DNA from: an uncultured bacterium
GTDB lineage: Bacteria; Bacillota_I; Bacilli_A; RFN20; CAG-826
Direction of reading: 5' to 3'
Assembly: GCA_949291375.1 (NCBI GenBank)
Contig: CASEVI010000002.1
Location: 166,069 to 230,068 of the forward strand
Length of the DNA: 64,000 bases
Below the pieces are notes generated by a model. The model made no database searches, had not been told where the DNA came from, and saw only the letters and a program-made list of their open reading frames with translations. A program made the position numbers and the translations under genes. Shown piece after piece: positions 24,317-51,324 of this stretch (position 1 is its first letter; the number at the start of each line of letters is the position of its first letter).

Positions 24317-24787
24317 TTACTCCATAAAATGTCCAAAATCATATGGATAATCTCGATAATCTTTATAACATAGTTCTTTTAAAATTGAATCACTAACTAA
24401 AGAAGCTTCATAAGCATCAATAAGCAACATCATCTTATCTTCATTTTCAAAATAAATGTAAAATTTTTCATTATTTTCAAAATAATAATTTCCAATTTTT
24501 ATATATTCAATAACTCCTGTTATAGCGTCTCCTGTTAAATTAGGTTCTTTAAATTTAAAAATATATAAATCATTATCATTTTCATCAACAAAATAATATA
24601 ACTTATAAATTTCATAACCTTCTACTTTTTCATGAGTTTCAAAATATTTCTCGCTAATTTTATTAATTATCTCTAGATTTACACCATTAAAATAATCAAT
24701 ATTTGAATCAACTTTTAAAGATGAACATGAAGAAAAAATAAAAGCAATAAATATAATAATTAGTTGAAAAAAGTGTTTTTTATTCAT
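24317..24787 (-). CDS. Lipoprotein overlapping the secreted subtilase gene
   Basis: About 156 residues from the ATG at 24787 (MNKKHFFQLIIIFIAFIF), chosen over a longer frame because it has GGAG and a proper signal peptide with lipobox FSSC. It overlaps the subtilase stop by eight bases, so the two are translationally coupled. The mature part is rich in Tyr, Glu and Asp and predicts mostly beta strands plus a final helix (LIDAYEASLVSDSILKEL). No family recognised. Position suggests a role with the peptidase. Confidence 0.78.
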   Translation of the reverse strand: MNKKHFFQLIIIFIAFIFSSCSSLKVDSNIDYFNGVNLEIINKISEKYFETHEKVEGYEIYKLYYFVDENDNDLYIFKFKEPNLTGDAITGVIEYIKIGNYYFENNEKFYIYFENEDKMMLLIDAYEASLVSDSILKELCYKDYRDYPYDFGHFME

Positions 24788-26318
24788 TAACAAAATCTCC
24801 ATTTTTAAAGGAAATATAATCTTCATAAGAAAGATTCAAAACATGATCAATATATTTCGTTTCTTTAGAATAATATTCACCATTAATATAATCGAAATTA
24901 TCAATTAATGAAATATTTGAACTTCTTCCCGAAACAACAAAACCCATTTCTGCTTCGCCACCACAAAGTAAGCATGTCGCATACCTTTGGCCATCACTAA
25001 AAGAACCTCCGGCCACAACGTGTCCACTTTTGACCTTTTCTCCACAAGCACAAATAGAATAATGATATTTTTTGTCCAAATATTTATATTCATCATAAAC
25101 ATGTTGGTGAATAGACGAAAAAGCATTAATTAAACCACCAGTTTTACATAGACCATCTAGAGAATTTATTTTAGTTGTGGAATTCATAATTTTAGATTTG
25201 ATTTGGTTAATAGAAAACGTAGGATTATTAGACATTGCTAAAGCAGCAATTCCGCTAACAATAGGAGCAGCAGCAGATGTTCCGGTGTAAGGATTGTATT
25301 TTCCGTAAAATTTGGATTCGTAACCAGATGCAGCAGTCGACATAACACCAACTCCAGGAGCAAATAAATCAACACTTTTTGTTCCGTAACTTGAAGAATT
25401 ATACTTAAATCCAGTATGAGCGAAACCACCAACAACAATCATATTATCGGTATTAAAACAAGCAGGATACGTTGGGTTAACATCAAGGTTAGTATTGCTA
25501 TTTCCTGCAATCGTTATAAAAAGACCAGGAAAATCTTCAATTGTTGATTTCATAGCTTCAGAATATGGAAAATTGTATCCACTAAAGTTGATTATATCAA
25601 CATTTTTGGATGTACAATAATTAATAGCTTCGATTGTAGCATTGTAATCAAAGTAAGTTTCCCCATTAGATTCATATCCAACATTAATTGAGATAACATC
25701 AACTTTTGGAGCGATTCCTGCTACGCCTAAATTATTATGCGGTGCATTAATAATACCAGCAACCATAGTACCATGATCATCAACAAAAAATTCTTTATCG
25801 CTTGATTCCGGAGATAAAGATATAGATAAGTTTTTGTTTATATTTAAATCTTCATGATCCATGTCAACGCCAGAATCAATAATGGCGACCCTTATGCCAT
25901 TGTTTCCTTTCGTTTCATCCCGCGCTTCTTCAATATATATGTCTTCATTAAACCAATTATAATCATAATATTTATCACTAGGAATATATCCACTTATACC
26001 ACAACCACCTTCTTCTAGATAATATTTGTCATTGCTAACTGATAGATTCTTTAAAGTATCAAAACTTACAGTAGAATATCCTCTAAAAACAATATTTTTT
26101 TCTCTTTCTGGATTCAATGTAATTCTTTCAATTTGATAAATACCAATTTCGTTTAAAGAATTAAATAAATTGTTATTAATTTGATTTTTATTTTTTATAG
26201 TAACAAAAACAACGTTTTCATTATCAAAAAATGTTTTCGCCATTCTAAAAGAACAGCATAATATGGAAGCCCCAATAATCAAAATTATTTTAATTTTTTT
26301 ATTATTTATCAATTCCAT
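24780..26318 (-). CDS. Secreted subtilisin-like serine peptidase with C-terminal Cys/His domain
   Basis: 512 residues. A signal or anchor segment (about 9-27), a propeptide-like stretch (to about 130), then an S8 catalytic domain with Asp148 (AIIDSGVD), His182 (DDHGTMVAG), the oxyanion Asn273 (TIAGNS) and Ser348 (GTSAAAP). After it comes a domain of about 50 residues with ligand-like His and Cys: KYHYSICACG, GHVVAGG and QRYATCLLC (404-452). The same domain is found at the C-termini of the peptidases at 43861 and 50062. The tail VLNLSYEDY is shared with the 43861 protein. Two lipoprotein genes follow. Confidence 0.93.
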   Translation of the reverse strand: MELINNKKIKIILIIGASILCCSFRMAKTFFDNENVVFVTIKNKNQINNNLFNSLNEIGIYQIERITLNPEREKNIVFRGYSTVSFDTLKNLSVSNDKYYLEEGGCGISGYIPSDKYYDYNWFNEDIYIEEARDETKGNNGIRVAIIDSGVDMDHEDLNINKNLSISLSPESSDKEFFVDDHGTMVAGIINAPHNNLGVAGIAPKVDVISINVGYESNGETYFDYNATIEAINYCTSKNVDIINFSGYNFPYSEAMKSTIEDFPGLFITIAGNSNTNLDVNPTYPACFNTDNMIVVGGFAHTGFKYNSSSYGTKSVDLFAPGVGVMSTAASGYESKFYGKYNPYTGTSAAAPIVSGIAALAMSNNPTFSINQIKSKIMNSTTKINSLDGLCKTGGLINAFSSIHQHVYDEYKYLDKKYHYSICACGEKVKSGHVVAGGSFSDGQRYATCLLCGGEAEMGFVVSGRSSNISLIDNFDYINGEYYSKETKYIDHVLNLSYEDYISFKNGDFVNE

Positions 26319-26551
26319 AATTCATTTTTTCATATTTAATAAAAAATGTCAAATATTTCTATAGAGTAAAATTATGATAATTCTCGAAAAATTATAGTTA
26401 TATAAAGTTGTTAAATAATTGATGATGTCAACTATAATTTCAAGTTTCGTTTTTAAAAATAATTGAGATACTTTTTAAACTCTTAATAATAAATTGATTG
26501 TCGAAAGAAATCTTAAAAGGATTAATAAAACAATACTAGATAAATATATAA

Positions 26552-26764
26552 ATTAAAGTTCTTACCGCACAATTTAATTATTTTAAATATGATAAAAAAC
26601 TTTTTGATATTATGTAAACAAATGTTAAATTAATTCAAACAACACCTACACTTTATAAAGAAGATACAAAAGATATAAATAGAGAAGCTCTTACTGTTCC
26701 TAGAAAAGAAGCTATTAAAAGAAACGAAAAACTTTTAAAAGATTTAAAAAATCCTTATCAATGA
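26552..26764 (+). pseudogene. Degenerate remnant of an unidentified gene
   Basis: One frame reads through 70 codons with a single TAA near codon 22 and ends at TGA 26762. Its C-terminal part is clearly protein-like, with TTPTLYKEDTKDINREALTV followed by PRKEAIKRNEKLLKDLK, while upstream the frame decays into stops. I do not recognise the family. The rest of 26319-26551 is AT-rich with further stop-ridden traces. Confidence 0.4.
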
Positions 26765-26768
26765 TTAA

Positions 26769-28057
26769 CTAATTTAATAAATATTTACTATTTATCTTTC
26801 TTAACTTCTTTTTTTCTTTATTAATATTTATCTCATCAAAATATAATTTTATATTATTTTTTAAGATTATATATCCTTCAAAATGAGTATTTATAACCAT
26901 AAATACTTTTAATCTTTTAGGAATAAAAAGTGCATAGATTCCTAAAGTAATAATAGAAAGAAAAAACCATAAAATATACTTAATAAATAGATCTATAAAC
27001 CTTCCTTTAAACTTAAGTTTAAAGGAAGAATAATAAGTAGTATTTATTTTATATTCTTCTAATTTTAAATATTTTAATGAAGAAAGTAATCCTAAAGAAA
27101 TATATGAAATAAATGAATAAAAGATATTAATAATAAAATAATAAAAAGAGTTATAAGTAGTATAAGATTTATTATTAATAATTTTTATATTATCATCTAT
27201 AAAATAAGTATTGTTTATTGGATAAATCCTAAATTTATTATTGATAATAAAAGAAAAAAGAAAGAATGTTAAAATGTTTAAAAGATAATATAAAAAGTAA
27301 AGTGGATATAAATCTTTAATTTTACTCTAAAAATTAAAGATTTATTATCAATAGTTGTATGATTAACTATATATCTTTCTTTAATAATAAAAAATATTGG
27401 ATAAAATAAAAATAGCGTTACTAAATTAAAAATAATACTAAATATATTAAAAATAATGATAAATACATAAGATCCATTAAATGAAGATTTAATATTTTTA
27501 TTTAAATATTTTTCATTATATTCTTCTTTTCTTTTATCAATTATTTTTTCTATATATTTAATTTCTTCATTTCTTTTTTTAATTAATAATAAATAATTAT
27601 CATTTATTAAATCTAATTCTTTTTTTATTAAGTTTAATTTATTTATATTTTTCTTTTTTATTTCTATTATCTTATTTATTTTATTTAAAAATTCATAAAG
27701 TTCACTTTTAAAATAAATAAAGTGAACTTTATATATTACTTTATATAAATAAAATTTAATTTTTAAATTAAATAAATAAATTAAAATAAAAATGAAAAAT
27801 ATAAATAAAGAAATAAAAAGAAGAATATAAAATATATTAAATATTGTTTCATTATTAATAATAAATCCATTAGAAGGATCATTACTATCTTTAATAACTA
27901 CTTCATTGATAATATTAAAATGAGTTAAAAGTAAAATAGTTAAAGAAATAATAAAAAGAAGAAAAGATGCAATTAAAAATATGATTATATATAAGTCATA
28001 TTTTAATAATTTAGCCTTTAAATTATCTAATTTTAATTTAACCACTTCTTTTTTCAT
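26769..28057 (-). pseudogene. DUF898-like membrane protein, frameshifted
   Basis: An intact frame of 259 codons from 28057 stops at 27278, but the adjacent frame continues the protein to a TAG at 26769. Inserting one base in the T3 run at about 27315-27317 restores a product of about 429 residues: TTIDNKSLIFRVKLK joins to DLYPLYFLYYLLNILTF. The C-terminal half contains SSFKLKFKGRFIDLF and LSIITLGIYALFIPKRLK, like DUF898 (YjgN-type) proteins. The N-terminal half has two membrane spans and a Lys/Glu coiled coil. Either a recent mutation or an assembly error. Confidence 0.7.
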
Positions 28058-28161
28058 TTATATTTAAAATTTTAGTATAAAAGCGACAAATAATTAATTA
28101 AATTAAGTATTTATATCGATAATAAAATGATTTTCTTTAAGTTTTGTATTATATTTTAGAT

Positions 28162-31396: not shown

Positions 31397-31403
31397 AATT
31401 TAA

Positions 31404-31955: not shown

Positions 31956-32068
31956 ATATTTACTTTAATAGTTAAATAAAATGTTTTTTATTTAACTAAT
32001 TATATAATAGAAATTTATAATATAAATATAAAAAAATATTTATTTTGTTAAAATATATATAGAAATAT

Positions 32069-33565: not shown

Positions 33566-33590
33566 ACTATATTAAACAATCATTTATTAA

Positions 33591-34877
33591 TTAATAAATA
33601 TAAGGTAATGAATTAGTTTCAAAATATGTTGCTGCATTCATTGATAACATGGATAGAGCATAACTAAGTTCATTATCTGAATTAACAATATATTTAGATA
33701 ATGTTTCATTATTTTCAACTCCGTCATGATCTAAATTTTTTGGTGCAGTTAACATTGGTGGTTCTCCATAACTAGAAACATTAAATCTAGTATTTATATC
33801 ACCCAATTCATCAGATATATGATAAATAAAATTACCAACTACTCCCCCACTTTCTTTTAATTCATTATAATCAAAAGTAATAGTTAATGAAATTGAAGGA
33901 ATAACACGATGATTATCAATTAATAGATAAGAGAATGCTTCTTTTTCTACTCTTAAAGAGAAATCACGATTAGTTTTTGAATAACCTAAATAATAATTAT
34001 TTGATAATAAAACATAATTATAACTATCTTTGTCATAATTTGGGTTATAGTGCGAAAGAATATATTCTCTTACTGTTGTTCGATCACTAGGAAGTTCATT
34101 ACTTTCATATTGAGCAATAAAATTAGTGTCCGCTAAAATTTGGGTAGTAGCTTCACTTTTATCCCATCCCTTAAAAGTATAAACGGTTTTTGTTTCTCCA
34201 TTAGAAGAGATTTCATCAGCTTTTGTTGGTGTTGGTCCTTCATATTTAGCATAACTTCCAGCATCAACTTCTGTTTCATAAAGAATAGTTGTTTCATCTT
34301 CATCGTAATATCTAACAACATATTTAATAGTTGATGGTTTAAAATCAGGTTTTAATGTTAAATTTGAGATAACATTATCTAAAGATGAACCATTAACACC
34401 TTCATTATCTTCAATAATCCATCCTCCAGTCCATTCCCAAGAAGTTGTTTCATCAGGTAATCTTGAAGGAATTGGATGTAAAGATGAATTATAAGTAACA
34501 CTACCTTCCGCTTCAACACTAGTTTCCCATAAAAGTGAGTTATCATCATTTAAAAATTTAACTGTATAAGTTCTTCTTGTTTCATTAAAAATAGGCCTAA
34601 AAGTTAAATCGCTAGTAATATTATCAAGCGAATTATCCCATCCACTAAAAGTATATGAATGAGTTGAAGTTTCTTCTTTTGTTGGTGTTTCTCCATTATA
34701 TGTATAATTTTGATGTTCAAAAACAGTATCTTTTAAAAGAACACTTCCATCATTATTTAAAAAAGTAAGATTATATTTTTTAACTAAAGCATTTAAAAAT
34801 GGATAAGAAGCTTCACTACAACTAGTTAAAGTTAAAATAGTTCCAAGTGTTAAAGCAATTAAACTAATTTTTTTCAT
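33591..34877 (-). CDS. B-repeat (InlB/Flg_new-like) lipoprotein, cassette 1
   Basis: 428 residues. Signal peptide with lipobox LTLTSC anchors it outside. Three to four repeats of about 65 residues follow, built on YTVKFLNDD...LLWET and YTFKGWD, the Listeria-Bacteroides B-repeat pattern of surface proteins. The C-terminal 150 residues are unlike the repeats (SDRTTVREYILSHYN). It lies 26 bases downstream of a 4-TM SHOCT protein gene. The same pair recurs at 37300-39555. Likely surface adhesion or binding; partner of the membrane protein by context. Confidence 0.88.
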   Translation of the reverse strand: MKKISLIALTLGTILTLTSCSEASYPFLNALVKKYNLTFLNNDGSVLLKDTVFEHQNYTYNGETPTKEETSTHSYTFSGWDNSLDNITSDLTFRPIFNETRRTYTVKFLNDDNSLLWETSVEAEGSVTYNSSLHPIPSRLPDETTSWEWTGGWIIEDNEGVNGSSLDNVISNLTLKPDFKPSTIKYVVRYYDEDETTILYETEVDAGSYAKYEGPTPTKADEISSNGETKTVYTFKGWDKSEATTQILADTNFIAQYESNELPSDRTTVREYILSHYNPNYDKDSYNYVLLSNNYYLGYSKTNRDFSLRVEKEAFSYLLIDNHRVIPSISLTITFDYNELKESGGVVGNFIYHISDELGDINTRFNVSSYGEPPMLTAPKNLDHDGVENNETLSKYIVNSDNELSYALSMLSMNAATYFETNSLPYIY

Positions 34878-34903
34878 TTTTCTTTTTCCTCCTTTTATTC
34901 TAA

Positions 34904-35944
34904 TTATTTAGAAAATGTTGATGAAGAAGAAAAATGTTCTTCAATCATTGCTTCTTTATATTTTTTATATTCAGCTTCACTGATTTTATTTTCTTCTCTT
35001 AACTTATTCAAATTTGCTAGCTTTTCTTCTAAAGTCTTTTTCTTTGTTTCAACTTTAGGTGTTTCAATATTTTCACTTTTATTTTCATCTAAAAGAGATT
35101 CATTAAGTGAAGAATCTTTAATTTCTTCACTAGTTTTATTAACTTCAATATTTTCTTCCTCATTTAATAATGAAGAAGAATTATTATCATCGATAATATT
35201 TACTCCTTGAGTAGTTATATTATTAGTTTCATTATTTTCATTATTTAAAGATTCATCATTATCAATAATTTTTTCTTTTTTATGGAAGAATAATCTTTTT
35301 ACTTCTTTTTCTCCTTCTAGTAAATATGGATCTTTAGTTAAATCAACATTACCTTTAAATGTTGGATAAGGAGAAGAATTTTTAATTTCGTTACGATAAT
35401 CAAAAAATGAAATTAAAGCTAAAACTAAAGCTAAAATTCCTAAAACAAAAGAACAAATAGCAGTGATTATCGCTCCAAATCCAATTCCTTCACTCACTAC
35501 TCCTCCAATTAATATCCCGCCTTGATTAAAACCAATTTCGCCATCTAAAGTAATATTCATTATTTTATTAGAAAAAGATGATAAAAAACCAATTGTTAAA
35601 GCTAAAATAGAGAATATTAAATTAGTCGATATAAATAAAACTGAGTTTTTTCTTTTTATAAATATGGAAACAAGAGAAAAAACAAAGGCAATTATAAGTA
35701 AAATTAAAATAACCATTGCAATAGGTTGACGAATTACTCTTATAACAGAATTAAAAAATGAATCAGTTCCGATAGCATCAAAACCAAAAGCAAATGCTAA
35801 ACCAGTAATTGAAATTGATCCTTGAAGCAAATAAGAACCATAGACTTGAGAAATATAACAAGTAAAAAACGGAAAAACTAATCCTCCTAACGCTAATAAA
35901 CTAGCAAGAATCATTAAACTATTAAAAACATATTTTTTAGCCAT
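34904..35944 (-). CDS. Four-TM protein with C-terminal SHOCT domain, cassette 1
   Basis: 346 residues. Four hydrophobic segments (about 8-30, 76-98, 104-125 and 155-180) form an N-terminal membrane domain with an extracellular loop between 1 and 2. A long acidic, Asn-rich cytoplasmic linker follows. The end is a SHOCT-like hairpin: LEEKLANLNKLREENKISEA and EYKKYKEAMI. It is the first gene of a two-gene unit with the B-repeat lipoprotein. A paralogue of the same length class and order stands at 38662. Confidence 0.85.
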   Translation of the reverse strand: MAKKYVFNSLMILASLLALGGLVFPFFTCYISQVYGSYLLQGSISITGLAFAFGFDAIGTDSFFNSVIRVIRQPIAMVILILLIIAFVFSLVSIFIKRKNSVLFISTNLIFSILALTIGFLSSFSNKIMNITLDGEIGFNQGGILIGGVVSEGIGFGAIITAICSFVLGILALVLALISFFDYRNEIKNSSPYPTFKGNVDLTKDPYLLEGEKEVKRLFFHKKEKIIDNDESLNNENNETNNITTQGVNIIDDNNSSSLLNEEENIEVNKTSEEIKDSSLNESLLDENKSENIETPKVETKKKTLEEKLANLNKLREENKISEAEYKKYKEAMIEEHFSSSSTFSK

Positions 35945-36159
35945 ATCTATCTAATATCCCTTTCTTTAAATAAAAATAAAATACTCTTATATATTTAATT
36001 AATTTTAATAATTATTAAAATTAAGAATTTATATAATCTTTACTCTTATTATTTTATATCAAAAGCATAATAGAATTAACCTAAAAATTATGGAAATGAT
36101 GAAAAAATATTCTTGAATAAATTATAAATTATGTATATTGAACGTAAAAATATCTAAAT

Positions 36160-37246
36160 AAGTTAATTTAAAAAATTAATGATAATCGAATAAAGATTAT
36201 AACTGGCTTAAGAAGATCGGATAAATCTGTTCTTTTAAATGAACTTTTTATAACTATTTAATTAAAAATGGTATTTTTCAAGATCATATTATTCGTATTG
36301 AACTTGACGATTATAAAAATAAAGAATTTTTATATCCTAATAAATTATATAAATTTGTTAAAGAAACGATTTAAGATGATTCAACTTACTTTTTATTACT
36401 TGATGAAATACAACTTGTTGATGATTTTATTCATTTATTATTAGTTTTTATCTTATTAAAAACTTAAATGTTTATGTAACTCTTTCAAATGTCAAATTTC
36501 TTTCTAAAGATATTATTAGTGAATTTAATGATTATGGAGTTGAAATAAAAATATATCTTTTAAGTTTTAAAGAATATTATGATTTAATAAATAAAAATAT
36601 TAATGAAACTTATCAAAATTATATTAAATTTAGTAGATTACCTAAATTAATAGAATTTAATGATGAAAATGATAAAGAAGAATACCTTTATAGTGCTTTA
36701 AAAGAAACTTATTTAAAAGATATTTATGCTAGATATAAAATAAAAGATAAAGATGAGTTTAATGAATTAACTTCATTTTTAGCTTCTTCTATCGGATGTA
36801 AATTTTCACCTTTAAAACTTTCTAATTCTTTTAATTCTTTAAAAAAAGAAAAAATTACTACTTATACTTTAAATAAATATCTTTCATATATAATGGATTC
36901 TTTTTTAATCGACGAGATTAAAAAAGATAACTTAAAAGGTAAAAATTTAATTAACCCTCCTAAAAAATATTTTTTTAATGATTTAGAGGAAACTCATTTA
37001 ATGGAAAATTTAATTTATAATGAACTCATTAAAAGAGGCTATAAAGTTAGTTTAGGAGGTTTAATTTATAATGGTAAAAACGAATATAATATTAGTTATC
37101 GTAAAGAATTAGAAATAGATTTCATCGCTAAAAAGAATAATAAAACTTATTATATTCAAAACGCTTATCAAATATATAATGAGGATAAAAAATATCAAGA
37201 AATAAGACCTTTTACTTTATTAAATGAAGATAGTTTAGATTTATAA
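36160..37246 (+). pseudogene. Decayed DUF4143 AAA ATPase
   Basis: The protein can be followed through several frame breaks: DNRIKIITGLRRSDKSVLLN (Walker A with the Gly before Lys changed to Asp), FQDHIIRIELDDYKNKEFLY, FLLLDEIQLVDDFI, then a long intact stretch to the stop at 37246 with the DUF4143 end ETHLMENLIYNELIKRGYKV, ELEIDFIAKK and YYIQNAY. Loss of the P-loop glycine plus frame breaks (near 36250, 36375 and 36445) show it is not functional. Confidence 0.78.
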
Positions 37247-37261
37247 AAGTAAGCAATATTT

Positions 37262-37292
37262 AAAAAATCTCATAAAATTTATGAGATTTTTT
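37262..37292. terminator. Bidirectional terminator
   Basis: AAAAAATCTCAT-aaaattt-ATGAGATTTTTT between the dead ATPase (stop 37246) and the convergent lipoprotein gene (stop 37300). Confidence 0.88.
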
Positions 37293-37299
37293 ACTTTTT

Positions 37300-38643
37300 T
37301 TATAAATAGAGATTAAATCCATCTGGAAGAAGATTACCTAATCTAGAAATATATCCTCTAAGTTGAACATTATGTTCTGGAATAATATTTTCAGTTAATC
37401 TATTTTCACATGATGATAAATATCCATTAACATCTCCACTTACACTACGTCTAATATTAATTGCTTTAACAACATTAAGTTCCGAAGCATTCATTCCAAA
37501 TGTGAAAAGAATTTCTCCTTTTCCATTAGGGAAAGTGAAACGACAAGTTCCAGTAGCTTCAGCAATTTTTTTATATTCAAATGGTACTAAATACTCAACT
37601 TCAACTGCTTCTTTATTGTTATTATTATCAAAAACTTCAACAGTGTTTTTATATTGTAATAAATAGTAATTATGAGAATCTTCATACCCTAAATAATATC
37701 CAGAGAATGTTGCATCTTTTCCAATAAAGACAGTTTTATATTTAATTTCTTCCTTATCACCATCTTCATCATCGCTTCCAGGCTTATCAGCATCGACATT
37801 TCCAGTTTCTCCTGTGGTATTTCCGCTACCTCCATCAACAAGATCACCAAATTCAAATCTATCAGATAATTCTTGTCTACTTGTAAAATTAGCATCAACA
37901 ACTAAATCAGAAGTAACAACAGTCGTTAATAAATTAACGCTCCATCCAGTAAAAACATATACTTTTTTATACATTGAAGAAATTTCTTCATCTGGTTTTG
38001 AAGGTGTTGGGCCTGTATAGGTTCCAATAGTTTTTCCTTTTTCAACCATTTGAGAATGAATAGTTTTTCCATCAACATTAAATGAAACTTGATATTTTCT
38101 AACACTCTTATCAAAAATAGGAGAGACAGTCATATCTCCAGTAACTTCACTAACATCTGAAGTCCATCCATTGAATGTATAATCATAATCATCATCAGAT
38201 GGTTTTGTTGGTGTTGCTCCACTATATTTAGCCTCTTCACCAGCTTTAACAGGTACTTTTTCTAAAACTTGTCCATCTTCACCAATAAAAGTAACATAAT
38301 ATGTTCTAACAGACTCACTATATTCAGGATAAAAATCAGTTGATTTAGTTATATTATCTAAAGATTCACTCCAACCTGTAAAAGTATATTCGTTATAAGT
38401 TGTAGGATTTTTTTCAGGTAAACTTCCTTCAAATTTAACATTTTCATGCTCTTTTACTTTTGTTTCATAAACTACTTTAGTTCCAGTTGCATCAAAAAAT
38501 CTACATGTATAAGTTTCAAAAATAGGTTCAACAAATGGTGATTTTGAATCTGAACTATTTGAAACCCCGCATGAAGCAAGAGAAATTGAGCCAACAAATA
38601 AAGGAGCAACTAATAAAATTTTTAACATTTTGCTTTTTTTCAT
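37300..38643 (-). CDS. B-repeat lipoprotein, cassette 2
   Basis: 447 residues. Lipoprotein signal with lipobox SLASC, then four B-repeats of about 65 residues (for example YYVTFIGEDGQVLEKVPVKA followed by GEEAKYSG, and YTFNGWTSDVSEVTGDM). A Gly/Asp-rich spacer (GGSGNTTGETGNVDADKPGS) and a non-repeat C-terminal domain follow, ending RLGNLLPDGFNLYL. It is the partner of the 4-TM SHOCT gene 18 bases upstream. Paralogue of the 33591 product; the C-terminal domains resemble each other in having YYLGY-type segments. Confidence 0.88.
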   Translation of the reverse strand: MKKSKMLKILLVAPLFVGSISLASCGVSNSSDSKSPFVEPIFETYTCRFFDATGTKVVYETKVKEHENVKFEGSLPEKNPTTYNEYTFTGWSESLDNITKSTDFYPEYSESVRTYYVTFIGEDGQVLEKVPVKAGEEAKYSGATPTKPSDDDYDYTFNGWTSDVSEVTGDMTVSPIFDKSVRKYQVSFNVDGKTIHSQMVEKGKTIGTYTGPTPSKPDEEISSMYKKVYVFTGWSVNLLTTVVTSDLVVDANFTSRQELSDRFEFGDLVDGGSGNTTGETGNVDADKPGSDDEDGDKEEIKYKTVFIGKDATFSGYYLGYEDSHNYYLLQYKNTVEVFDNNNNKEAVEVEYLVPFEYKKIAEATGTCRFTFPNGKGEILFTFGMNASELNVVKAINIRRSVSGDVNGYLSSCENRLTENIIPEHNVQLRGYISRLGNLLPDGFNLYL

Positions 38644-38661
38644 ATTTTTTCCTCCTAAAAA

Positions 38662-39555
38662 CTATTTATTTTTATCAGCATAGTGTTTTTCAACCAATGC
38701 TTGACGGAATTTTTTATATTCAGCATCAGAAATTTGATGATTGTTATGAAGTTTTTCTAAATCAGCAAGTTTTTCTTGTAAACTCTTTTCCTTATTTGGT
38801 TTAACTTCTTCTTCCTTTATATCGTCTTCTTTAACTTCTTCATTATTTTCTAAAGAAGGCACTTCTTCTTTATCTTCTTTTTTAAAGAAACCAAGTAATT
38901 TACCAACATATTTATTTTCTAATAATTTTGAACCGTTAAATCCTAATTTTAATTTCTTTTCTTCTTCAATTAATGGACCAGCATAACCTTTTCTCTTATT
39001 AAGCTTAGCAGCAATTCGATAACCAAAAAATGAAAGGAAAGTTAAAACTAAAGCTAAAACACCATAAATTCCACTTCCAACAATAGAAATTAAAGCGCCA
39101 TAAGCTAAACCTTCATTTTGAATTAAGCTTTCATAACCAACTAATTCTCCTTTTAAAGAGATATTAGAAATTTTTAAAGAGAAAATAAGTAAAAACATTG
39201 AAACTATACCAATTATTCCGGCAGCTAAATTTAAAAAATGGTACATAACGGAATCTTTATGTTTCAAGCAAATTGAAATAATTGCTAAAACTAATAAAGC
39301 AATTGCTAAAATTCCAATAACCATAAATAAAATACTTTGTTGAACAAAAATATTTTTTTCAACAAAATAACCAGTCTTTATAGCACTTAATCCAAAAATA
39401 AAACCAATTCCACTAGCACTTAAAGAGCCGTTTACATTTTGAGAACCTAAACTACCGACAATATTTGCGCTATAAAAAGGTAAAAAGAATCCTCCTAAAA
39501 AAAGAATTCCAAAAAAAATCATTAATCCTGTTAAAACGTATTTTGTTTTTGTCAT
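38662..39555 (-). CDS. Four-TM protein with C-terminal SHOCT domain, cassette 2
   Basis: 297 residues. Four membrane segments (about 7-30, 70-92, 100-125 and 150-175) as in the 34904 protein; the first loop has the shared GSLSASGIGFIFGLSAI (compare GSISITGLAFAFGFDAI). The cytoplasmic part is Glu/Lys-rich and ends with the SHOCT-like LQEKLADLEKLHNNHQISDA and EYKKFRQALV. SHOCT hairpins usually mediate oligomerisation. Function unknown. Confidence 0.85.
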   Translation of the reverse strand: MTKTKYVLTGLMIFFGILFLGGFFLPFYSANIVGSLGSQNVNGSLSASGIGFIFGLSAIKTGYFVEKNIFVQQSILFMVIGILAIALLVLAIISICLKHKDSVMYHFLNLAAGIIGIVSMFLLIFSLKISNISLKGELVGYESLIQNEGLAYGALISIVGSGIYGVLALVLTFLSFFGYRIAAKLNKRKGYAGPLIEEEKKLKLGFNGSKLLENKYVGKLLGFFKKEDKEEVPSLENNEEVKEDDIKEEEVKPNKEKSLQEKLADLEKLHNNHQISDAEYKKFRQALVEKHYADKNK

Positions 39556-41204: not shown

Positions 41205-41215
41205 TTTTTTACTTT

Positions 41216-43111: not shown

Positions 43112-43810
43112 TTATTTTATAATTTCTATATCTTCATTATATTTAAAATTGTATTCGATAGAATGACTTGTATGAGTTTTTTCATCAATAATATTAATAA
43201 AAGTATTTTTGTAATTTAATAAAAATCCATCTAAATTAAACGAGTATTCATATAAATTTATTGAAGCATTTGTAAGAACTAAACCATATAAGCCTAAATA
43301 AGAATCATTTTTAAAATATCTTTTGTTATAAATTGTATTAATTTTTGTTTTTAAATAATTTTTAAAACAATATAAATCTAAATATGAAGATAAATCAATG
43401 TTTTTATCAAAAAAATCTAAATTACTCTTTGTTCCATTATTATCTTCAATAAAAGTTGATAATAAAGGATCATAAAAAATTGAATAATAAGATTGATCAT
43501 TATTTTCTTTTCGATAATAAGGATAATTATTAGTTAAATTTTCAACTCCAATTGTTAAACTATTTTTATTAATTAAATTATCATATTCTTCATATTGAAT
43601 AAAATTCATTAAATAAATATTTTTAAAGTCATAGTTAAATTCTTGAGAAGTTTTGTTAAATTCATCTTCATTAATTTCTTCTTTTAAATCAAAAGAAGGT
43701 TTATCAATTAAATAGTCAAATTTAAAATTACTTTCAACATTATTACTACATGAAGTAATTGCCAAAAAGAACGATAAAATAGCATATTTTTTTATAGTTG
43801 TTTTCTTCAT
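43112..43810 (-). CDS. Lipoprotein divergent from the NlpC/CHAP-like peptidase gene
   Basis: 232 residues. Signal peptide with lipobox LAITSC, then an Asn/Tyr-rich, beta-predicted body with no recognised domain. It is transcribed away from the secreted peptidase at 43861, with only 50 bases between the starts, so the two promoters overlap and may be co-regulated. By analogy with the lipoproteins next to the other two peptidases, it may bind or inhibit the peptidase; this is inference. Confidence 0.78.
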   Translation of the reverse strand: MKKTTIKKYAILSFFLAITSCSNNVESNFKFDYLIDKPSFDLKEEINEDEFNKTSQEFNYDFKNIYLMNFIQYEEYDNLINKNSLTIGVENLTNNYPYYRKENNDQSYYSIFYDPLLSTFIEDNNGTKSNLDFFDKNIDLSSYLDLYCFKNYLKTKINTIYNKRYFKNDSYLGLYGLVLTNASINLYEYSFNLDGFLLNYKNTFINIIDEKTHTSHSIEYNFKYNEDIEIIK

Positions 43811-43860
43811 TAAAATTATTATATGATATAAAAAAATAGTATATCAAGGAGCTTTTTATA

Positions 43861-44796
43861 ATGTTAGTTACTTTGGCATCTTTAATTTCTATTTCTCTTT
43901 CAACATCAATTCCTTTGCCATACAATATTACTGAATATGGGTTGATAGGCGACCAAACAGTTGATTGGGAAAGAATTGGAGAACCTGAAACTGTGACTTT
44001 AAAGACACCTAATGGAAAAACGGTTTATGCCTATAAATACAAAAATGACTTAAACCAATCAGAAATTGATTATTCTATTAACTGGCTAGATTCCCTATAC
44101 CCAGAAGCATCTTTGTTGAGAAATCCCACAGTACAATATAATTGTCATTCATATGAATGGTATGATACTTCTCCACTAAACAGATATTGGGTTGATACTC
44201 CATCTCCTTATTATTTAGATAACAATTTAGTTCGACTCAGCACAGGTGAAATCGGTGATATTGTTGTTTATTTTAATGACTATGGTTATGCAATTCACTC
44301 TGGAATTATTGCATATAGAATAAGGGATTATGCCGGAGATATTTTGACTGATAATTATACAAAGACTATTAAAGATTTAGAAAATATAGTAATTAATTCA
44401 AAGTGGGGGTATCATGGTCTTTATACACATATTGGAAATGATTGTCCTTACAAAACTGCAAAATCAATAAAATATTATAAGTTTTTAGGCCATAACCATG
44501 CCTATAATTTTAATTACGAATATATTGATAATAAATATCATACATCATTTTGTTCTTGTGGCGTTTCTATTACTCAAGGTCACGTAGTCGCTAGTGGCTC
44601 CTTCCAAAACGATCAAAGATATGCTACGTGCTTACTGTGTAAAGGAATTGCTTCAATGGGTTTTACCATCTTACAACCGGAAAGTAATTCTTTAAATATA
44701 AATAACCAGTATTTTTTTAATAAAACGACAATGAAAAATGGTGTTCTTAATTTATCTTATGACGATTATAAATATTATATGGAGAATTATGTATGA
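43861..44796 (+). CDS. Secreted NlpC/CHAP-like cysteine peptidase with C-terminal Cys/His domain
   Basis: 311 residues, AAGGAG before the ATG. Signal peptide (about 1-18). The catalytic domain has Cys95 in YNCHSYEWYD, His146 in YAIHSGII after GDIVVYF, and a final SKWGYHGLYTH, the Cys/His arrangement of NlpC/P60 or CHAP amidases acting on cell-wall peptides. Residues 211-260 form the Cys/His domain (NKYHTSFCSCG, GHVVASG, QRYATCLLC), nearly identical in pattern to the subtilase at 24780. The tail VLNLSYDDY is also shared. A lipoprotein gene overlaps by four bases. Confidence 0.87.
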   Translation: MLVTLASLISISLSTSIPLPYNITEYGLIGDQTVDWERIGEPETVTLKTPNGKTVYAYKYKNDLNQSEIDYSINWLDSLYPEASLLRNPTVQYNCHSYEWYDTSPLNRYWVDTPSPYYLDNNLVRLSTGEIGDIVVYFNDYGYAIHSGIIAYRIRDYAGDILTDNYTKTIKDLENIVINSKWGYHGLYTHIGNDCPYKTAKSIKYYKFLGHNHAYNFNYEYIDNKYHTSFCSCGVSITQGHVVASGSFQNDQRYATCLLCKGIASMGFTILQPESNSLNINNQYFFNKTTMKNGVLNLSYDDYKYYMENYV

Positions 44797-45281
44797 AAAA
44801 GACATCAACTTTATTTGCCTTAATATTAAGTTTATTTTTGACATCTTGTTCTATGGAAACTTTTCATGAGTATTATATTTTTGATGGAAAGGGAAACAAT
44901 ACTTACACTTTTTCGGAGAAACAAATTGAAGAGCCAACATACGCTTTATTTTTAAATTCCTTAACTTTAAATGTCACTCATGTAGTTAAAGGTAAAGATT
45001 TATTCGAATCTTTAAATATAAAATCCCCGATTAAAATTAATAAAATAAGTGAGGAAGAAACAAATAATATTAAGTTTTTAAAAGACGAAAATATTTTTTA
45101 CTTCATTTACACAAAAACAATTAGCTATCCATTTTTATTTTCCGAAGATTTCGAAAATTTAATCTTAAAAAAAGGCAATTCATATTATAAATTAGATTTA
45201 ACATCCTCATCCGTTCCATCAATATATAATTATGTTATTGAATATGGAGCTTTTGTTTCTAATACAAGTTTTTTATTTTAA
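44793..45281 (+). CDS. Lipoprotein coupled to the NlpC/CHAP-like peptidase
   Basis: 162 residues. Signal peptide with lipobox LFLTSC. ATGA overlap (TGA stop of the peptidase, ATG start here) couples translation. Mature part is mostly beta, no family recognised; a late segment NLILKKGNSYYKLDLTSSSV resembles the ILKNG-type strands of the lipoproteins after the subtilase. Probable partner or immunity-type protein of the peptidase (inference). Confidence 0.8.
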   Translation: MKKTSTLFALILSLFLTSCSMETFHEYYIFDGKGNNTYTFSEKQIEEPTYALFLNSLTLNVTHVVKGKDLFESLNIKSPIKINKISEEETNNIKFLKDENIFYFIYTKTISYPFLFSEDFENLILKKGNSYYKLDLTSSSVPSIYNYVIEYGAFVSNTSFLF

Positions 45282-45286
45282 ATTCT

Positions 45287-46552: not shown

Positions 46553-46910
46553 TTATTCTTCTGCTACAGATAATTTAAAATCAACACCAATTCTATCAAA
46601 ATCTTCTATGCCTGATTCAATAGCTCCTAAATAAACTAAATTACTGCTCTGTTCACTATCTTCATAAAATATTGCAATGCTTCCATATGGAAGATAATAA
46701 CAAATATCGCCTTTTTTAGGTTCCCAACCTTTATCTTCATCTTTAACTAATAATCTTCTTTTTGGATAACCAATCTTTTCAGTGTTGTTAATATCGTAAA
46801 AAAGAATATTCCATTGGTAATAAAGATAAAAAATCGTTTGCAGTTTCATTATCAGTTAAATTAACTTTATATTTCTTATTATTAAAATTAATATAAACAG
46901 CCCTAGACAT
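46553..46910 (-). pseudogene. Cyclophilin-like fold protein, frameshifted
   Basis: The true start is the ATG at 46910 (GGGGG ribosome site nine bases upstream), giving MSRAVYINFNNKKYKVNLTD followed by NETANDFLSLLPMEYSF. That frame then stops, while the adjacent frame continues YDINNTEKIGYPKRRLL, GDICYYLPYGSIAIFY and LVYLGAIESG to 46553. Removing one base from the six-T run (46798-46803) restores a product of about 118 residues of the cyclophilin-like family often found in gut Firmicutes. Homopolymer slippage, mutation or sequence error. Confidence 0.75.
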
Positions 46911-47368
46911 AATTTCCCCCTTTTACACTTATAAAGTTTTAAATAATAAGTCTTTTAAAATTAAAATATTCACCACAAAATATTATCTAATAATTAATTA
47001 GACATTGTTTTAAATTTTTAAAACAAGATTAGTATAAAAATTGAAGCAATAAAATTAAATAAATATAAAAATCTTGTTTTTAAATTTAAAAAATCTAATT
47101 ACTTTAAATAATATTTTGATTAATAAAGAATAATTCTCCTTTATTGATTATATTTTAAAAAGTTAGAAATATAATTTTAATAGTTAATTAAAAATAATAA
47201 CTACATTTTATACATAAAAATAAATGTCACTTATAATATATACAAAAATAGGCCATTTTTGTGAAAAAATGTGAAAAAATAAAATTCAAAATTAATCAAA
47301 AATTATGTCTAAAAATGGTTTATTTTTAAAATAAATAACAAAATTTTAGAAAAATTGTAAAAAAATAT
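46911..47368. other. AT-rich intergenic region
   Basis: 458 bases without a supported gene. The only structure I see is GCCATTTTT (47252) paired with AAAAATGG (47312), and repeated GTGAAAAAA words around 47260-47280. It separates the cyclophilin-like gene from the 3' end of the amidohydrolase gene. Confidence 0.4.
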
Positions 47369-48541
47369 CTAAAGTTTATTTACTTCAATATTACCATTAA
47401 GCATTACAAAAACAATATAAGAATCATATCTCAAAGGATCTTTATCATAAATAACTATATCGGCATCTTTATCTTTTTTTATTGAACCAACAATATCATC
47501 GACACCAATTATTTTTGCAGCATAAATTGTATTTGCTTTTAAAGCTTCTAAATAAGGTAAACCTGCTTTAACAAATAAACCAGTTTGAGCTAAAGTAGTA
47601 TTAAGTGTTATAACCGGATGGTCACTCATAAAAGCAAAAGGAATATTATTTTCATATAAAACTTTTGCTGAATTAAAAGACTTGGCTTTTAATTCATATT
47701 TAGATTTATCTCCTAAAGTAGGACCTAAAATACATTTAACATGATGCTCTTTTAAAAACTCTGGAATTAAATATCCTTCAGTAGCATGTTCAATAGTATA
47801 ATCTAAGTTAAATTCTTCACTTATTTTAACAGCAGTAACAATATCATCAGCTTGATGAGCATGAATTTTTACCTTTAAACCTTCAAATACACGTTTTAAG
47901 CTTTCATATTTTTGATTAAAAGAAGGTTTTGTTAATTCTTTTCCTTCTTTTATTTCTTTATAATAATTGTCCCAAGATTCTTTATATAATTTAGCTTCAG
48001 TTAAAGCGTTTCTTAAAATTGCAGCATTAGCCATACGTGTAGAAGGGCCTTTATCTTTATAACATCTTTTAGGATTTTCTCCTAAAGCCATCTTCATAGC
48101 AACTTCTTCTTTTACCATCATATCAAAAACAGTTTTACCTTTAGTTTTTAATATAGTAAAAGTTCCTCCAATAATGTTTGCACTGCCTGGACCAGTGCAA
48201 ACAGTAGTTACACCATTTTCTAAAGCTTCTTTAAAAGATGCATCATGTGGTTTTATAGATTCAATTCCTTTAAGTTCTGGAGTAATGGGATTAGTAATTT
48301 CGTTAGTATCACTTCCTGGCCAACCATAAATTTGTTCCATCATTCCAATATGACAATGTGGATCAACTATTCCTGGCATTACAAATAAATTTTTAGCATC
48401 AATTACTTTTATAGAAGGATATTTAATAGATAAATCTTCTTTACTTACTTCAACAATCTTTTTACCATCAATTAAAATACTTCCTTTTTCATTATTTATA
48501 TCTTCCATTGTCCATAAATTACAATTTTTAATTACTATCAT
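47369..48541 (-). CDS. Amidohydrolase-family metal-dependent hydrolase
   Basis: 390 residues. A small beta domain (residues 1-55 and the C-terminus) flanks a TIM barrel with the metal ligands in VMPGIVDPHCHIG (H-x-H), KIHAHQADDI (His), TIEHATEGY (His) and FMSDHPV (Asp). It resembles imidazolonepropionase/YtcJ-like amidohydrolases acting on cyclic amides or N-acyl compounds. No signal peptide. It is transcribed alone. Substrate not identifiable. Confidence 0.9.
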   Translation of the reverse strand: MIVIKNCNLWTMEDINNEKGSILIDGKKIVEVSKEDLSIKYPSIKVIDAKNLFVMPGIVDPHCHIGMMEQIYGWPGSDTNEITNPITPELKGIESIKPHDASFKEALENGVTTVCTGPGSANIIGGTFTILKTKGKTVFDMMVKEEVAMKMALGENPKRCYKDKGPSTRMANAAILRNALTEAKLYKESWDNYYKEIKEGKELTKPSFNQKYESLKRVFEGLKVKIHAHQADDIVTAVKISEEFNLDYTIEHATEGYLIPEFLKEHHVKCILGPTLGDKSKYELKAKSFNSAKVLYENNIPFAFMSDHPVITLNTTLAQTGLFVKAGLPYLEALKANTIYAAKIIGVDDIVGSIKKDKDADIVIYDKDPLRYDSYIVFVMLNGNIEVNKL

Positions 48542-48674
48542 AAGTTTTTATCTCCAATTCTTTTTTATTAATATAAATTTTAACATAGTTAATAAAAAAT
48601 AATTTTTTTAATAAAAATTTCTTATATTTTTTCCTTTTTTTAATGTAGATTTTTTTCTAAAAAAGTTATTATTT

Positions 48675-48700
48675 AAAAACACGATAATTATCGTGTTTTT
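48675..48700. terminator. 26-base perfect palindrome, probable terminator
   Basis: AAAAACACGATAA / TTATCGTGTTTTT. On the minus strand it is followed by AAATAATAAC and lies 76 bases past the stop of the serpin gene (48776). Confidence 0.65.
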
Positions 48701-48775
48701 AAAATGTTTATACAAAAATAGGATAGTATTTTTTAAAAATATGCAAGAAATTGTACACTAAATTTAAAGAAAAAA

Positions 48776-50056
48776 TTACTCTAAATTAGTGATTTTCATT
48801 GAGAATATAGGAGTATTATAATCATCATTTAAAACAGAAAAGAGATAATGAGGTGAATCGATTATAAATTTTTGATCATAAATAGTTTCATCAACTCCTC
48901 CACTAGGTCCTAAAATAGTTACGCTTTTTCCTTTTACACCTTTTTCATTGAATTCAAATTCATTAAATTGCTTAGTAATCATTGTTGAATAACTTGCTAA
49001 TAAAGTATTATTTTTAACTACTTTTTTAAATAATGTATTAGTATCTATTTTATGAGAAGCAAATACTTCATCTATTGAAGTAGTTGAGTTTTGACTATCT
49101 AATTTAAAACTAGGTAGATAAACTTCAAAACCATGATCTTTTATATTTGTAGTAATTAATTCAAATTTAACATTAGAAAGATCTAAAGAGGAAATATCAA
49201 TACCATTGATATTTCCATTATTATTAACTACATATATTAAAGAAGTATTATTAATATTAAATTTATATGCTGTAGCATTAATATCATCTAAAGAAGCTTT
49301 ATAAAGAATAGAAGTCTTAATATAAACATAATCTTTATTATTAGTTACACTTCCATTTAGATTATTAAACTTCTCTTTTTTAATTTCTTTTTCATTTTTA
49401 AAACTATCTTCAATATTTAAAGCGTTAATTGCAAAAGCATAAGGTTCTTCAAACTGATATTGATCTTTTCCTAAATCAATATTAGTTTTATCTTTAATTA
49501 TTTCATTAATATATTCTGCACTACTTACCTTATTATTAGCCTTATTATTAGCAAAACTAGCTATATTTAATGTTTTATTTAGCGTTTCTAAATAAGAAAT
49601 ATCTAAATCTTTATTTTTATCTTCTATTGGACTAATAAAATAAAAGTTATAATTTTTAAAATCACTAACTAATTCATTTTCTTCATATAATTTAGAATTA
49701 AATAATGAAACTAAAGAATTATACATTTCTTTAGTTTCATCTATTGATGAAAAATTATATGAAGAATAAAAATCTTCTTTGTTAGAAGAAAAACCTAATG
49801 ATAAATAATCAATTAAAAAACAAATAGGAGAATAAATTTTATTATTAGAAGAAGAATAATTATTATCTTTTAAAGATAAATAACTATCTTTATATAATGA
49901 TGAAGATAATTTTTCATTTAAAAATGAAAAATTTAATTCATCATTTATCTGAATATTACTATCAAAAACTTCAACATCTTTATAAGAAACATTATTTTCT
50001 ACTTTACACGAAACAACAAATGGTAAAAGAACTAAAACTTTTATAAATTTTTTCAT
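48776..50056 (-). CDS. Serpin-family lipoprotein
   Basis: 426 residues. Signal peptide with lipobox FVVSC at Cys17. The body follows serpin landmarks: NKIYSPICFLIDYLSLGF (helix B start), FEVYLPSFKLDSQNSTT, the reactive-loop hinge FNEFEFNEKGVKGKSVT, and the C-terminal FIIDSPHYLFSVLNDDYN followed by TPIFSMKITN. The hinge is less alanine-rich than in inhibitory serpins, so inhibition is likely but not proven. It starts five bases after the cysteine peptidase gene in the same operon, suggesting protection from that or a related enzyme. Confidence 0.85.
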   Translation of the reverse strand: MKKFIKVLVLLPFVVSCKVENNVSYKDVEVFDSNIQINDELNFSFLNEKLSSSLYKDSYLSLKDNNYSSSNNKIYSPICFLIDYLSLGFSSNKEDFYSSYNFSSIDETKEMYNSLVSLFNSKLYEENELVSDFKNYNFYFISPIEDKNKDLDISYLETLNKTLNIASFANNKANNKVSSAEYINEIIKDKTNIDLGKDQYQFEEPYAFAINALNIEDSFKNEKEIKKEKFNNLNGSVTNNKDYVYIKTSILYKASLDDINATAYKFNINNTSLIYVVNNNGNINGIDISSLDLSNVKFELITTNIKDHGFEVYLPSFKLDSQNSTTSIDEVFASHKIDTNTLFKKVVKNNTLLASYSTMITKQFNEFEFNEKGVKGKSVTILGPSGGVDETIYDQKFIIDSPHYLFSVLNDDYNTPIFSMKITNLE

Positions 50057-50061
50057 AAATT

Positions 50062-51324
50062 TTACCTTACATTCTTAATATAATAAATCTCATCTTCTTC
50101 TGTTTCTAGAATTATTGCGTGGAAATCGAAAGAAGATGAAAGTGTATTAACTTTACTTAAATTTACATAATCATCTACAGTAATGGCCATATCTATATTT
50201 AAATCAAGTAGCTGGCCACACTCGATACAATTAACATAACGATGAATGCCAGAAGAAACAACATCTTTTAATCTTACAGCGTGCATACAAACGATATTAT
50301 TACCACATTGACAATACATAGTATGATTTCTTTTTCCGTTGGTTTTTGCATTAAAAGTATAAAAATGTTTAGAGTGAGAGGTAATAAATTTATTCCCGCT
50401 GGAATCAAAACATTTTTTACTATAATCATTTGAATGTTCGTGTTTTAGATATTTTGGAACAAAAACATATGCACCCCTAAGTTCATTGTATTCATCTCCA
50501 AATTTAACGTGAGTAGAGTTAGGAGCTAAAGAAAAAGAGTTATAATAAATGTTATTATTTGAATCTACATCATAAGCAATTGCTGAATGACCTATTCTTT
50601 TTCCCTTCTTTCCTATATCAATTACTACCGGATAATTTTTATTTATATTTTCAATAATAAAATCTTTCACTTCCTCTTCACTATTTCCACCAAATTGACT
50701 TCTTACATCAACATAATTAAAATAATAGCCCTTTTCAAAAATATTATTTTTATTTGCAAACTCTTTTATAACTTCTAAAGCTTCCACATTGTAAAGACCT
50801 AATTTATCCTCATTATTTTTGAAATCAATATAATTTTTATTATCAGCGATACTTAGTAATTCACCAATTATATTGTTTTCTTTGTTATCCGTATAATAAT
50901 CAAAATAATCAGTCCATGATTTTTTATTTAAAGCATTATAATCATCTATGATTCCTGGAGAAAAATAGTTTCCATATATAATCGAATCATTATTACCAAT
51001 AAATTCTGCTGATAATTCATTATATTTAGTGCTTACTATGTCATCGCTATAAAAAGTATCATAGTACATCAATAAATTAGTTATGGAAATATAAGAGCAA
51101 TTATTATGAACATTCGAATACATTAAATGCCCTTGTCCATCAAAAAATGTTTCAAGGAAATATTTATAGTTAGGTTTACTAGATGATAATAAAATTGAAT
51201 TAGAAGATTGATCACAGCCAGATATTCCTTGTTCGTTGTTTTTCCTTAGTCCAATTGTTGGAAAACAAAACAAAATTGTTGCAATAAAGCTTACATTTAA
51301 ACTATTTTTTATAACTTGAATCAT
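50062..51324 (-). CDS. Secreted papain/C39-like cysteine peptidase with C-terminal Cys/His domain
   Basis: 420 residues. Signal peptide (about 5-25). Catalytic Cys76 in NNCSYISITNLLMYYDTFY, His247 in GHSAIAYD and a following Asn263 (YYNSF) fit a C39/papain-type fold. Residues about 318-370 carry a Cys/His domain related to those of the peptidases at 24780 and 43861 (RNHTMYCQCG, CMHAVRL, IHRYVNCIEC). The serpin lipoprotein gene follows after five bases. Probably acts outside the cell or at its surface. Confidence 0.87.
   Translation of the reverse strand: MIQVIKNSLNVSFIATILFCFPTIGLRKNNEQGISGCDQSSNSILLSSSKPNYKYFLETFFDGQGHLMYSNVHNNCSYISITNLLMYYDTFYSDDIVSTKYNELSAEFIGNNDSIIYGNYFSPGIIDDYNALNKKSWTDYFDYYTDNKENNIIGELLSIADNKNYIDFKNNEDKLGLYNVEALEVIKEFANKNNIFEKGYYFNYVDVRSQFGGNSEEEVKDFIIENINKNYPVVIDIGKKGKRIGHSAIAYDVDSNNNIYYNSFSLAPNSTHVKFGDEYNELRGAYVFVPKYLKHEHSNDYSKKCFDSSGNKFITSHSKHFYTFNAKTNGKRNHTMYCQCGNNIVCMHAVRLKDVVSSGIHRYVNCIECGQLLDLNIDMAITVDDYVNLSKVNTLSSSFDFHAIILETEEDEIYYIKNVR

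What the first reader, a model, noticed from the sequence alone, without database searches (positions are those of the whole stretch)
24317..51324. Three exported peptidases of unrelated folds share one C-terminal Cys/His domain and each has an adjacent lipoprotein gene
The subtilase (24780), the NlpC/CHAP-like enzyme (43861) and the C39/papain-like enzyme (50062) end in the same pattern: H-x(2-3)-C-x-CG, then H-(V/A)-x, then RY-x-x-C-x-x-C. The first two also share a VLNLSY(E/D)DY tail. Each peptidase gene is directly followed by, or overlaps, a lipoprotein gene. Seen in sequence: the motif and the gene order. Inference: the domain is a metal-binding targeting or partner-docking module and the lipoproteins are anchors, inhibitors or immunity proteins. 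I do not know a named domain for it.
Basis: partly seen in the sequence, partly recalled or inferred. Interest (0 to 1): 0.82.

Follow-up and report, generated by a model that had tools for sequence, protein, structure and literature searches.

The report
Exported peptidases paired with lipoproteins
A small, apparently wall-less bacterium exports several unrelated enzymes that share one metal-binding-type tail domain, and each enzyme gene is tied to a gene for its own membrane-anchored partner protein (in one case a serpin, a known protease-trap fold), which looks like an attack-and-self-protection kit resembling one known from Tannerella but built from different parts.

Summary
Three exported enzymes (S8 subtilase, NlpC/P60-like, C39/papain-like) end in one homologous Cys4/His3 domain that matches nothing in Pfam, NCBIfam or PDB sequences, and each is followed at -8 to +5 bp by a lipoprotein gene. 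Two findings change the interpretation. (1) The lipoprotein follows the catalytic domain, not the shared tail: lipoprotein similarity tracks catalytic class (10/11 links, p=1.5e-4) while the tail shuffles freely (p=0.08), and tail-less small subtilases keep their lipoprotein. (2) The lipoprotein behind the C39-like enzyme has a serpin fold (top 50 PDB matches all serpins). Best explanation: a KLIKK/potempin-like arrangement, in which unrelated exported peptidases carry a common surface-address domain and each has a co-translated membrane-anchored partner that probably restrains it at the producer's surface. Inhibition is inferred, not shown. Functionally analogous to KLIKK/potempin, not a member of it.

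The parts
24780..26318 (-). S8 subtilase (512 aa) with signal/TM N-terminus, catalytic triad motifs (IIDSG, HGT, GTSAAAP) and C-terminal Cys/His domain
   Evidence: PF00082 E=4e-37; motifs
24954..25109 (-). Cys4/His3 C-terminal domain of the subtilase (residues 404-455), followed by VLNLSYEDY tail
24317..24787 (-). Partner lipoprotein 1 of the subtilase (MNKKHFF...FSSC); start codon overlaps the subtilase stop by 8 bp; belongs to the YYG/EAY-domain lipoproteins
23767..24288 (-). Second lipoprotein of the subtilase locus, also YYG/EAY-like (E=1e-6)
43861..44796 (+). NlpC/P60-like exported enzyme (311 aa): YNCHS and IHSGI motifs, then Cys/His domain
   Evidence: (best structural neighbours NlpC/P60, Z 5.9)
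44491..44652 (+). Cys4/His3 domain of the NlpC-like enzyme (residues 211-264), followed by VLNLSYDDY tail
44793..45281 (+). Partner lipoprotein of the NlpC-like enzyme (4-bp overlap ATGA)
43112..43810 (-). Divergent lipoprotein upstream of the NlpC-like gene; link to the system uncertain
50062..51324 (-). C39/papain-like exported cysteine peptidase (420 aa): NNCSY and GHSAI motifs, then Cys/His domain
   Evidence: (Mplas_Cys_pep E=0.0045, below cut-off)
50200..50373 (-). Cys4/His3 domain of the C39-like enzyme (residues 318-375); lacks the LNLSYxDY tail
48776..50056 (-). Partner lipoprotein of the C39-like enzyme: 426-aa lipid-anchored divergent serpin-fold protein, 5 bp downstream
51432..52468 (-). 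Large upstream lipoprotein of the four-gene cassette, frameshifted here near 52118-52154 (ORFs 52118-52468 and 51432-52154)
52443..52988 (-). XRE-type regulator with C-terminal membrane segments, first gene of the cassette

Best explanation
This is a modular set of exported hydrolases with dedicated membrane-anchored partners. Each unit is an exported enzyme (subtilase, NlpC/P60-like, C39-like, in relatives also metallopeptidase-like) with a plug-in C-terminal Cys4/His3 domain, probably zinc-binding, that gives enzymes of different folds a common address at or near the cell surface. A lipoprotein gene, usually overlapping or within a few bases of the enzyme gene, makes a lipid-anchored partner that acts on the catalytic part. 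The most likely role is a cognate inhibitor or restrainer that protects the producer's own surface, as potempins do for KLIKK peptidases; for the C39-like enzyme the partner is a serpin. Shown: domain homology, adjacency and its statistics, partner-class correlation, serpin fold, fusions, absence of PBP and SEDS families from the own genome. Inferred: metal binding, surface targeting, inhibition and self-protection.
For: Shared domain on unrelated enzymes. Tight downstream lipoprotein in 15/17 genus loci versus 24/424 background genes (Fisher p~1e-15), versus 5/100 other signal/TM genes and versus 0/17 large subtilases. Elsewhere in the order and class the partner is usually upstream on the same strand. 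Lipoprotein similarity stays within catalytic class (10/11 links, expected 3.5, p=1.5e-4) while tail-domain similarity does not (99/297, expected 94, p=0.08), so the partner most likely meets the catalytic domain. Small subtilases lacking the tail keep the lipoprotein. One partner is a serpin fold: profile-profile probability 99% to lipoprotein serpins that pass PF00079, all 6 PDB profile hits serpins (best E=2.6e-4), AlphaFold model (pLDDT 68) with top 50 Foldseek matches all serpins, best E=5e-18. In genome G002 a 3-kb deletion removed the subtilase but left its lipoprotein intact with low dN/dS (0.097, same as a neighbouring gene) while the peptidase remnant carries mostly amino-acid-changing differences. 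Two relatives fuse lipobox + YYG/EAY domain to the subtilase. Precedent: KLIKK/potempin (PMC4404884, PMC7296668) and Bacteroides C10/Bfi (PMC2873492).
Against: No inhibition was or could be measured. The YYG/EAY domain of subtilase partners is common in lipoproteins of the class that are mostly not beside a subtilase, so it may have a general role. In the fusions the domain stays in cis with the enzyme precursor, which equally suits a tether or pro-domain. The own genome lacks PBP and SEDS families, so a wall-less producer would not need protection from an NlpC/P60 enzyme if that enzyme cuts peptidoglycan. The serpin's reactive-loop hinge is atypical (EKGVKGKSVT) and most serpins of the genus are not beside exported peptidases. 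Two genus loci have no downstream lipoprotein (G014 metallopeptidase-like; G003 second subtilase, which has a multi-TM protein instead). Deletion timing in G002 is unknown and the counts there are small.
Confidence: 0.5

Rival explanations
1. Tether or co-factor model: the lipoprotein anchors its enzyme at the membrane of a cell without a wall, or assists its folding, and does not inhibit it.
For: Own genome lacks PBP and SEDS genes. Most large subtilases of the genus carry C-terminal TM-plus-basic anchors and none has a tight downstream lipoprotein (0/17), as if anchor and lipoprotein were alternatives. Two natural lipobox-subtilase fusions.
Against: One general anchor would suffice, yet lipoproteins differ by catalytic class. 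A serpin fold is a strange tether. The lipoprotein outlives the enzyme in G002.
Confidence: 0.22
2. Foreign-protease defence: the serpin and other lipoproteins defend against host or competitor proteases, and operon linkage to the own peptidase is only co-regulation.
For: The genus has many lipoprotein serpins, most not beside exported peptidases; [quoted passage not shown]
Against: Gene overlaps and class-specific pairing across unrelated families point to a specific partner.
Confidence: 0.15
3. Substrate-capture model as in MIB-MIP of mycoplasmas: the lipoprotein binds a target protein and presents it to the exported peptidase.
For: MIB binds antibody and recruits the serine protease MIP at the mycoplasma surface (PMC8593674). 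Lipoproteins here are diverse and sometimes tandem.
Against: Partner type follows enzyme class. The serpin partner suggests protease trapping. No homology to MIB or MIP was tested.
Confidence: 0.13

Closest known systems
KLIKK proteases and potempins of Tannerella forsythia (PMC4404884, PMC7296668)
   Same: Secreted peptidases of unrelated catalytic types share one C-terminal domain; each gene is tied to a small lipoprotein gene; the lipoproteins are mutually dissimilar and reported (as data to be published) to inhibit the co-expressed protease. The same organism also has a serpin, miropin.
   Different: Other phylum. The shared domain there is a type IX secretion signal ending in KLIKK; here it is a Cys4/His3 domain without that ending. 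The lipoprotein gene lies upstream there, downstream in this genus. Inhibition not shown here. One partner here is itself a serpin fold.
Bacteroides fragilis C10 proteases Bfp and inhibitors Bfi (PMC2873492); SpeB-Spi and staphopain-staphostatin
   Same: Cysteine protease gene adjacent to and co-transcribed with a small predicted inhibitor, lipid-anchored in some Bacteroides cases.
   Different: One protease family each, no domain shared across folds; staphostatin-like or propeptide-like inhibitors, not a serpin.
MIB-MIP of mycoplasmas (PMC8593674)
   Same: Surface pair of a binding protein and a serine protease in wall-less relatives.
   Different: Partner recruits substrate; a shared Cys/His tail is not described; homology not tested here.
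H...CxCG...H...CxxCG repeats of Firmicutes surface proteins (seen here in L015)
   Same: Part of the domain weakly matches such repeats (E=2e-4).
   Different: The domain here is usually single, C-terminal, has an added CLLCGG segment and conserved tail, and sits mainly on hydrolases.

Membership tests
Serpin superfamily (window 48776-50056) | Serpin fold over the whole chain | tested here: met
   AlphaFold model (mean pLDDT 68.4, pTM 0.76, 17-row alignment); Foldseek top 50 all serpins, prob 1.00; PDB profile hits all serpins
Serpin superfamily (window 48776-50056) | Score above Pfam PF00079 (a detection criterion rather than a defining trait) | tested here: not met
   No Pfam hit up to E=10; the link runs through the profile-profile match to PF00079-positive relatives. 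I therefore call it a divergent serpin-fold protein.
Serpin superfamily (window 48776-50056) | Reactive-loop hinge of inhibitory serpins (E-x-G at P17-P15, small residues P12-P9) | tested here: inconclusive
   Sequence EKGVKGKSVTILGPSGG: P17 E, P15 G, P12 G, P10 S present, but P11 is K and P14 is V
Serpin superfamily (window 48776-50056) | Forms a complex with a target protease | not testable with these tools
   Needs biochemistry
Peptidase S8 (window 24780-26318) | PF00082 match and Asp/His/Ser triad motifs | tested here: met
   E=4e-37; motifs at residues 146, 182, 346
NlpC/P60 (window 43861-44796) | NlpC/P60 fold with catalytic Cys and His | tested here: inconclusive
   Model pLDDT 73.7; best VIA matches are NlpC/P60 proteins but Z only 5.9; YNCHS and IHSGI motifs; no Pfam hit, relative L054 hits DUF7689 at E=0.003 below cut-off
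C39 / Mplas_Cys_pep cysteine peptidases (window 50062-51324) | Score above the curated family cut-off | tested here: not met
   Mplas_Cys_pep 16.9 bits vs cut-off 45, E=0.0045; relative L199 C39_2 17.1 vs 24 bits. The label 'C39/papain-like' is a lead, not a membership.
KLIKK-potempin system | Peptidases of unrelated fold share one C-terminal domain | tested here: met
KLIKK-potempin system | Lipoprotein gene adjacent to each peptidase gene, lipoproteins dissimilar across enzyme classes | tested here: met
KLIKK-potempin system | Shared domain ends in KLIKK (type IX secretion CTD) | tested here: not met
   Here a Cys4/His3 domain with other endings; hence functional analogue, not a member
KLIKK-potempin system | Lipoprotein inhibits its co-encoded peptidase | not testable with these tools
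   Needs biochemistry
MIB-MIP system | Homology to MIB or MIP | not tested
   Considered from literature only

The most novel reading that the evidence does not exclude
In a wall-less lineage of Bacilli, one Cys/His domain works as an exchangeable surface-address tag shared by several hydrolase folds, and each tagged enzyme is co-translated with a private, membrane-anchored restrainer. One of these restrainers is a serpin encoded in the same operon as its own target cysteine peptidase.
Probability: 0.3. Interest if true: 0.8.

Novelty: new variant of a known kind. Interest (0 to 1): 0.62.

Why it matters
If true, the logic of the Tannerella KLIKK/potempin kit (a common tail on unrelated peptidases plus a private lipoprotein inhibitor) arose independently in Bacillota that appear to lack a cell wall, with a different tail domain. 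It would give a new family of enzyme-inhibitor pairs, an unnamed Cys/His domain with a testable address function, and a case where the natural target of a bacterial serpin could be read from its operon.

Tried and rejected
Rejected: lipoprotein as docking receptor for the shared domain. Rejected: chance adjacency. Led nowhere: Pfam and NCBIfam scans of domain and small lipoproteins; PDB profile search of the domain gave only a zinc finger at E=0.095; viral contigs gave no relatives; genome contigs gave five loci already covered by genome searches; Foldseek of the NlpC-like model gave nothing under E=0.05 and tested the Cys/His domain poorly, so that domain's fold is open. Iterated HMMs including signal peptides drifted, so I repeated with mature sequences and shuffled decoys. 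I considered the YYG/EAY domain as a subtilase-only inhibitor; a class-wide search showed it is widespread elsewhere, so specificity is not claimed. The serpin loop has GG at the predicted P2-P1, tempting as C39 bait, but other serpin loops of the genus are also glycine-rich, so I give it no weight.

Full report
Observation. The three ORFs and their adjacent lipoprotein genes are as described. The C-terminal domains are homologous: the subtilase and NlpC-like copies are 51% identical (E=3e-30), and an alignment of 14 members keeps four Cys and two His invariant with a third His nearly so. The own genome holds only these three copies. Pfam, NCBIfam and the PDB sequences give no significant match to the domain.

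Distribution of the domain. In the genus 9 of 26 genomes have it; in a class-wide sample 31 of 395 genomes, 14 of 193 genera; in a phylum-wide sample all 13 matching genomes belong to the same class. Hosts outside the genus are subtilases, NlpC-like, C39-like, a second Cys-motif type (YNCYAF/Y), M10-like and HEYFH metallopeptidase-like proteins, plus one BspA-type LRR protein. The class labels without a Pfam hit are my reading of motifs, not curated assignments.

Lipoprotein linkage. In the genus 15 of 17 complete domain-bearing enzymes have a same-strand lipoprotein gene directly downstream, at -56 to +24 bp as called with first-start ORFs (one lipobox, G015, was judged by eye). Background in the same loci is 24 of 424 genes, 5 of 100 for other signal/TM genes, and 0 of 17 for the large 1,200-1,480-aa subtilases, most of which end in a TM-plus-basic anchor. 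Outside the genus the lipoprotein is usually upstream. Of 18 loci with usable flanks, by my reading have an adjacent same-strand lipoprotein within about 130 bp (two lipoboxes judged by eye), two are fusions and two have none (L189, L193).

What the lipoprotein pairs with. Across 26 enzyme-lipoprotein pairs, significant lipoprotein similarities fall within one catalytic class in 10 of 11 cases (expected 3.5, p=1.5e-4), whereas similarity of the Cys/His domain is nearly independent of class (99 of 297, expected 94, p=0.08). Common descent of whole operons contributes to the first number, but the contrast with the tail domain of the same operons is informative. Two small subtilases of the genus that lack the domain (L138, L139) still have a tight downstream lipoprotein. 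The subtilase partners share a YYG/EAY domain: with mature sequences, non-seed members reach E of 7e-11 to 7e-4 against a best decoy of 0.002. In L197 and L200 this domain, with its lipobox, is fused in front of the subtilase. The same domain is, however, common in other lipoproteins of the class.

The serpin. The 426-aa lipoprotein behind the C39-like gene gives no Pfam hit, but its single-sequence PDB search returned only a serpin (E=0.048), its four-member profile hits six PDB sequences, all serpins, and it matches PF00079-positive lipoprotein serpins of the genus at 99% probability over 392 columns. The AlphaFold model (pLDDT 68) has serpins as its 50 best Foldseek matches. An almost identical pair (serpin 97% identical) sits in G021. 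The reactive-loop hinge is atypical, so inhibitory activity is open.

Cassette and natural deletion. The XRE regulator and a large lipoprotein upstream of the C39-like gene recur upstream of subtilases in G002 and G023 and beside a remnant in G002. In the window the large lipoprotein is frameshifted, and in G021 it is frameshifted at a different place. Between G023 and G002 a syntenic deletion of about 3 kb removed regulator, large lipoprotein and most of the subtilase; the partner lipoprotein is retained with 3 amino-acid differences and dN/dS 0.097, equal to a neighbouring gene (0.10), while the about 55-codon enzyme remnant shows mostly amino-acid-changing differences and a 12-bp deletion. 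This suggests independent value of the lipoprotein; numbers are small.

Cell envelope. The own genome (96.7% complete) lacks the PBP transpeptidase and SEDS families, consistent with the peptidoglycan-deficient families described among uncultured Bacilli orders (PMC10868615). The taxonomic name of the organism was not established.

Interpretation. The arrangement is that of Tannerella KLIKK peptidases and potempins, where peptidases of unrelated class share one C-terminal domain and each follows a gene for a small lipoprotein reported to inhibit it (PMC4404884, PMC7296668). Here the shared domain is different and inhibition is unproven. I rate cognate restraint at 0.5, tether or co-factor at 0.22, defence against foreign proteases at 0.15 and substrate capture at 0.13. 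The shared domain is most simply an address module; metal binding follows from the invariant Cys/His pattern only.

Noticed in passing
G000:C1:303988-305115, G000:C1:211944-212273 and loci L094-L109: The genus is rich in lipid-anchored serpins (PF00079 in 13 of 26 genomes); most do not sit beside exported peptidases. In L101 two serpins directly follow a gene whose C-terminus looks like a PepC-type (C1) aminopeptidase.
   Followed up: partly
L144-L157, L063 (large subtilases): Many of the 1,200-1,480-aa subtilases are followed by a gene for a roughly 130-150-aa multi-TM protein, often with an ACDG motif, possibly another enzyme partner.
   Followed up: no
window 51432-52468 and L045 6377-7420: Large upstream lipoprotein frameshifted at different places in the own genome and in G021.
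   Followed up: partly
window 33591-39555: Two tandem units of a repeat-containing lipoprotein and a multi-TM protein (33591/34904 and 37300/38662), apparently duplicated.
   Followed up: no
L189 6974-8942, L193 2011-3394: Sigma-factor and anti-sigma-like gene pairs lie upstream of Cys/His-domain enzymes that lack a lipoprotein neighbour; the L189 anti-sigma-like protein carries a YYG/EAY match (G294:C21:12833-13132).
   Followed up: no
L186 151-6159: C39-like peptidase, lipoprotein and BspA-type LRR protein in one row, both outer proteins carrying the Cys/His domain; the only clear non-enzyme host found.
   Followed up: no
L199 3152-4390: Lipoprotein beside a C39-like enzyme itself begins with an H/C-rich motif like the first half of the shared domain.
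   Followed up: no
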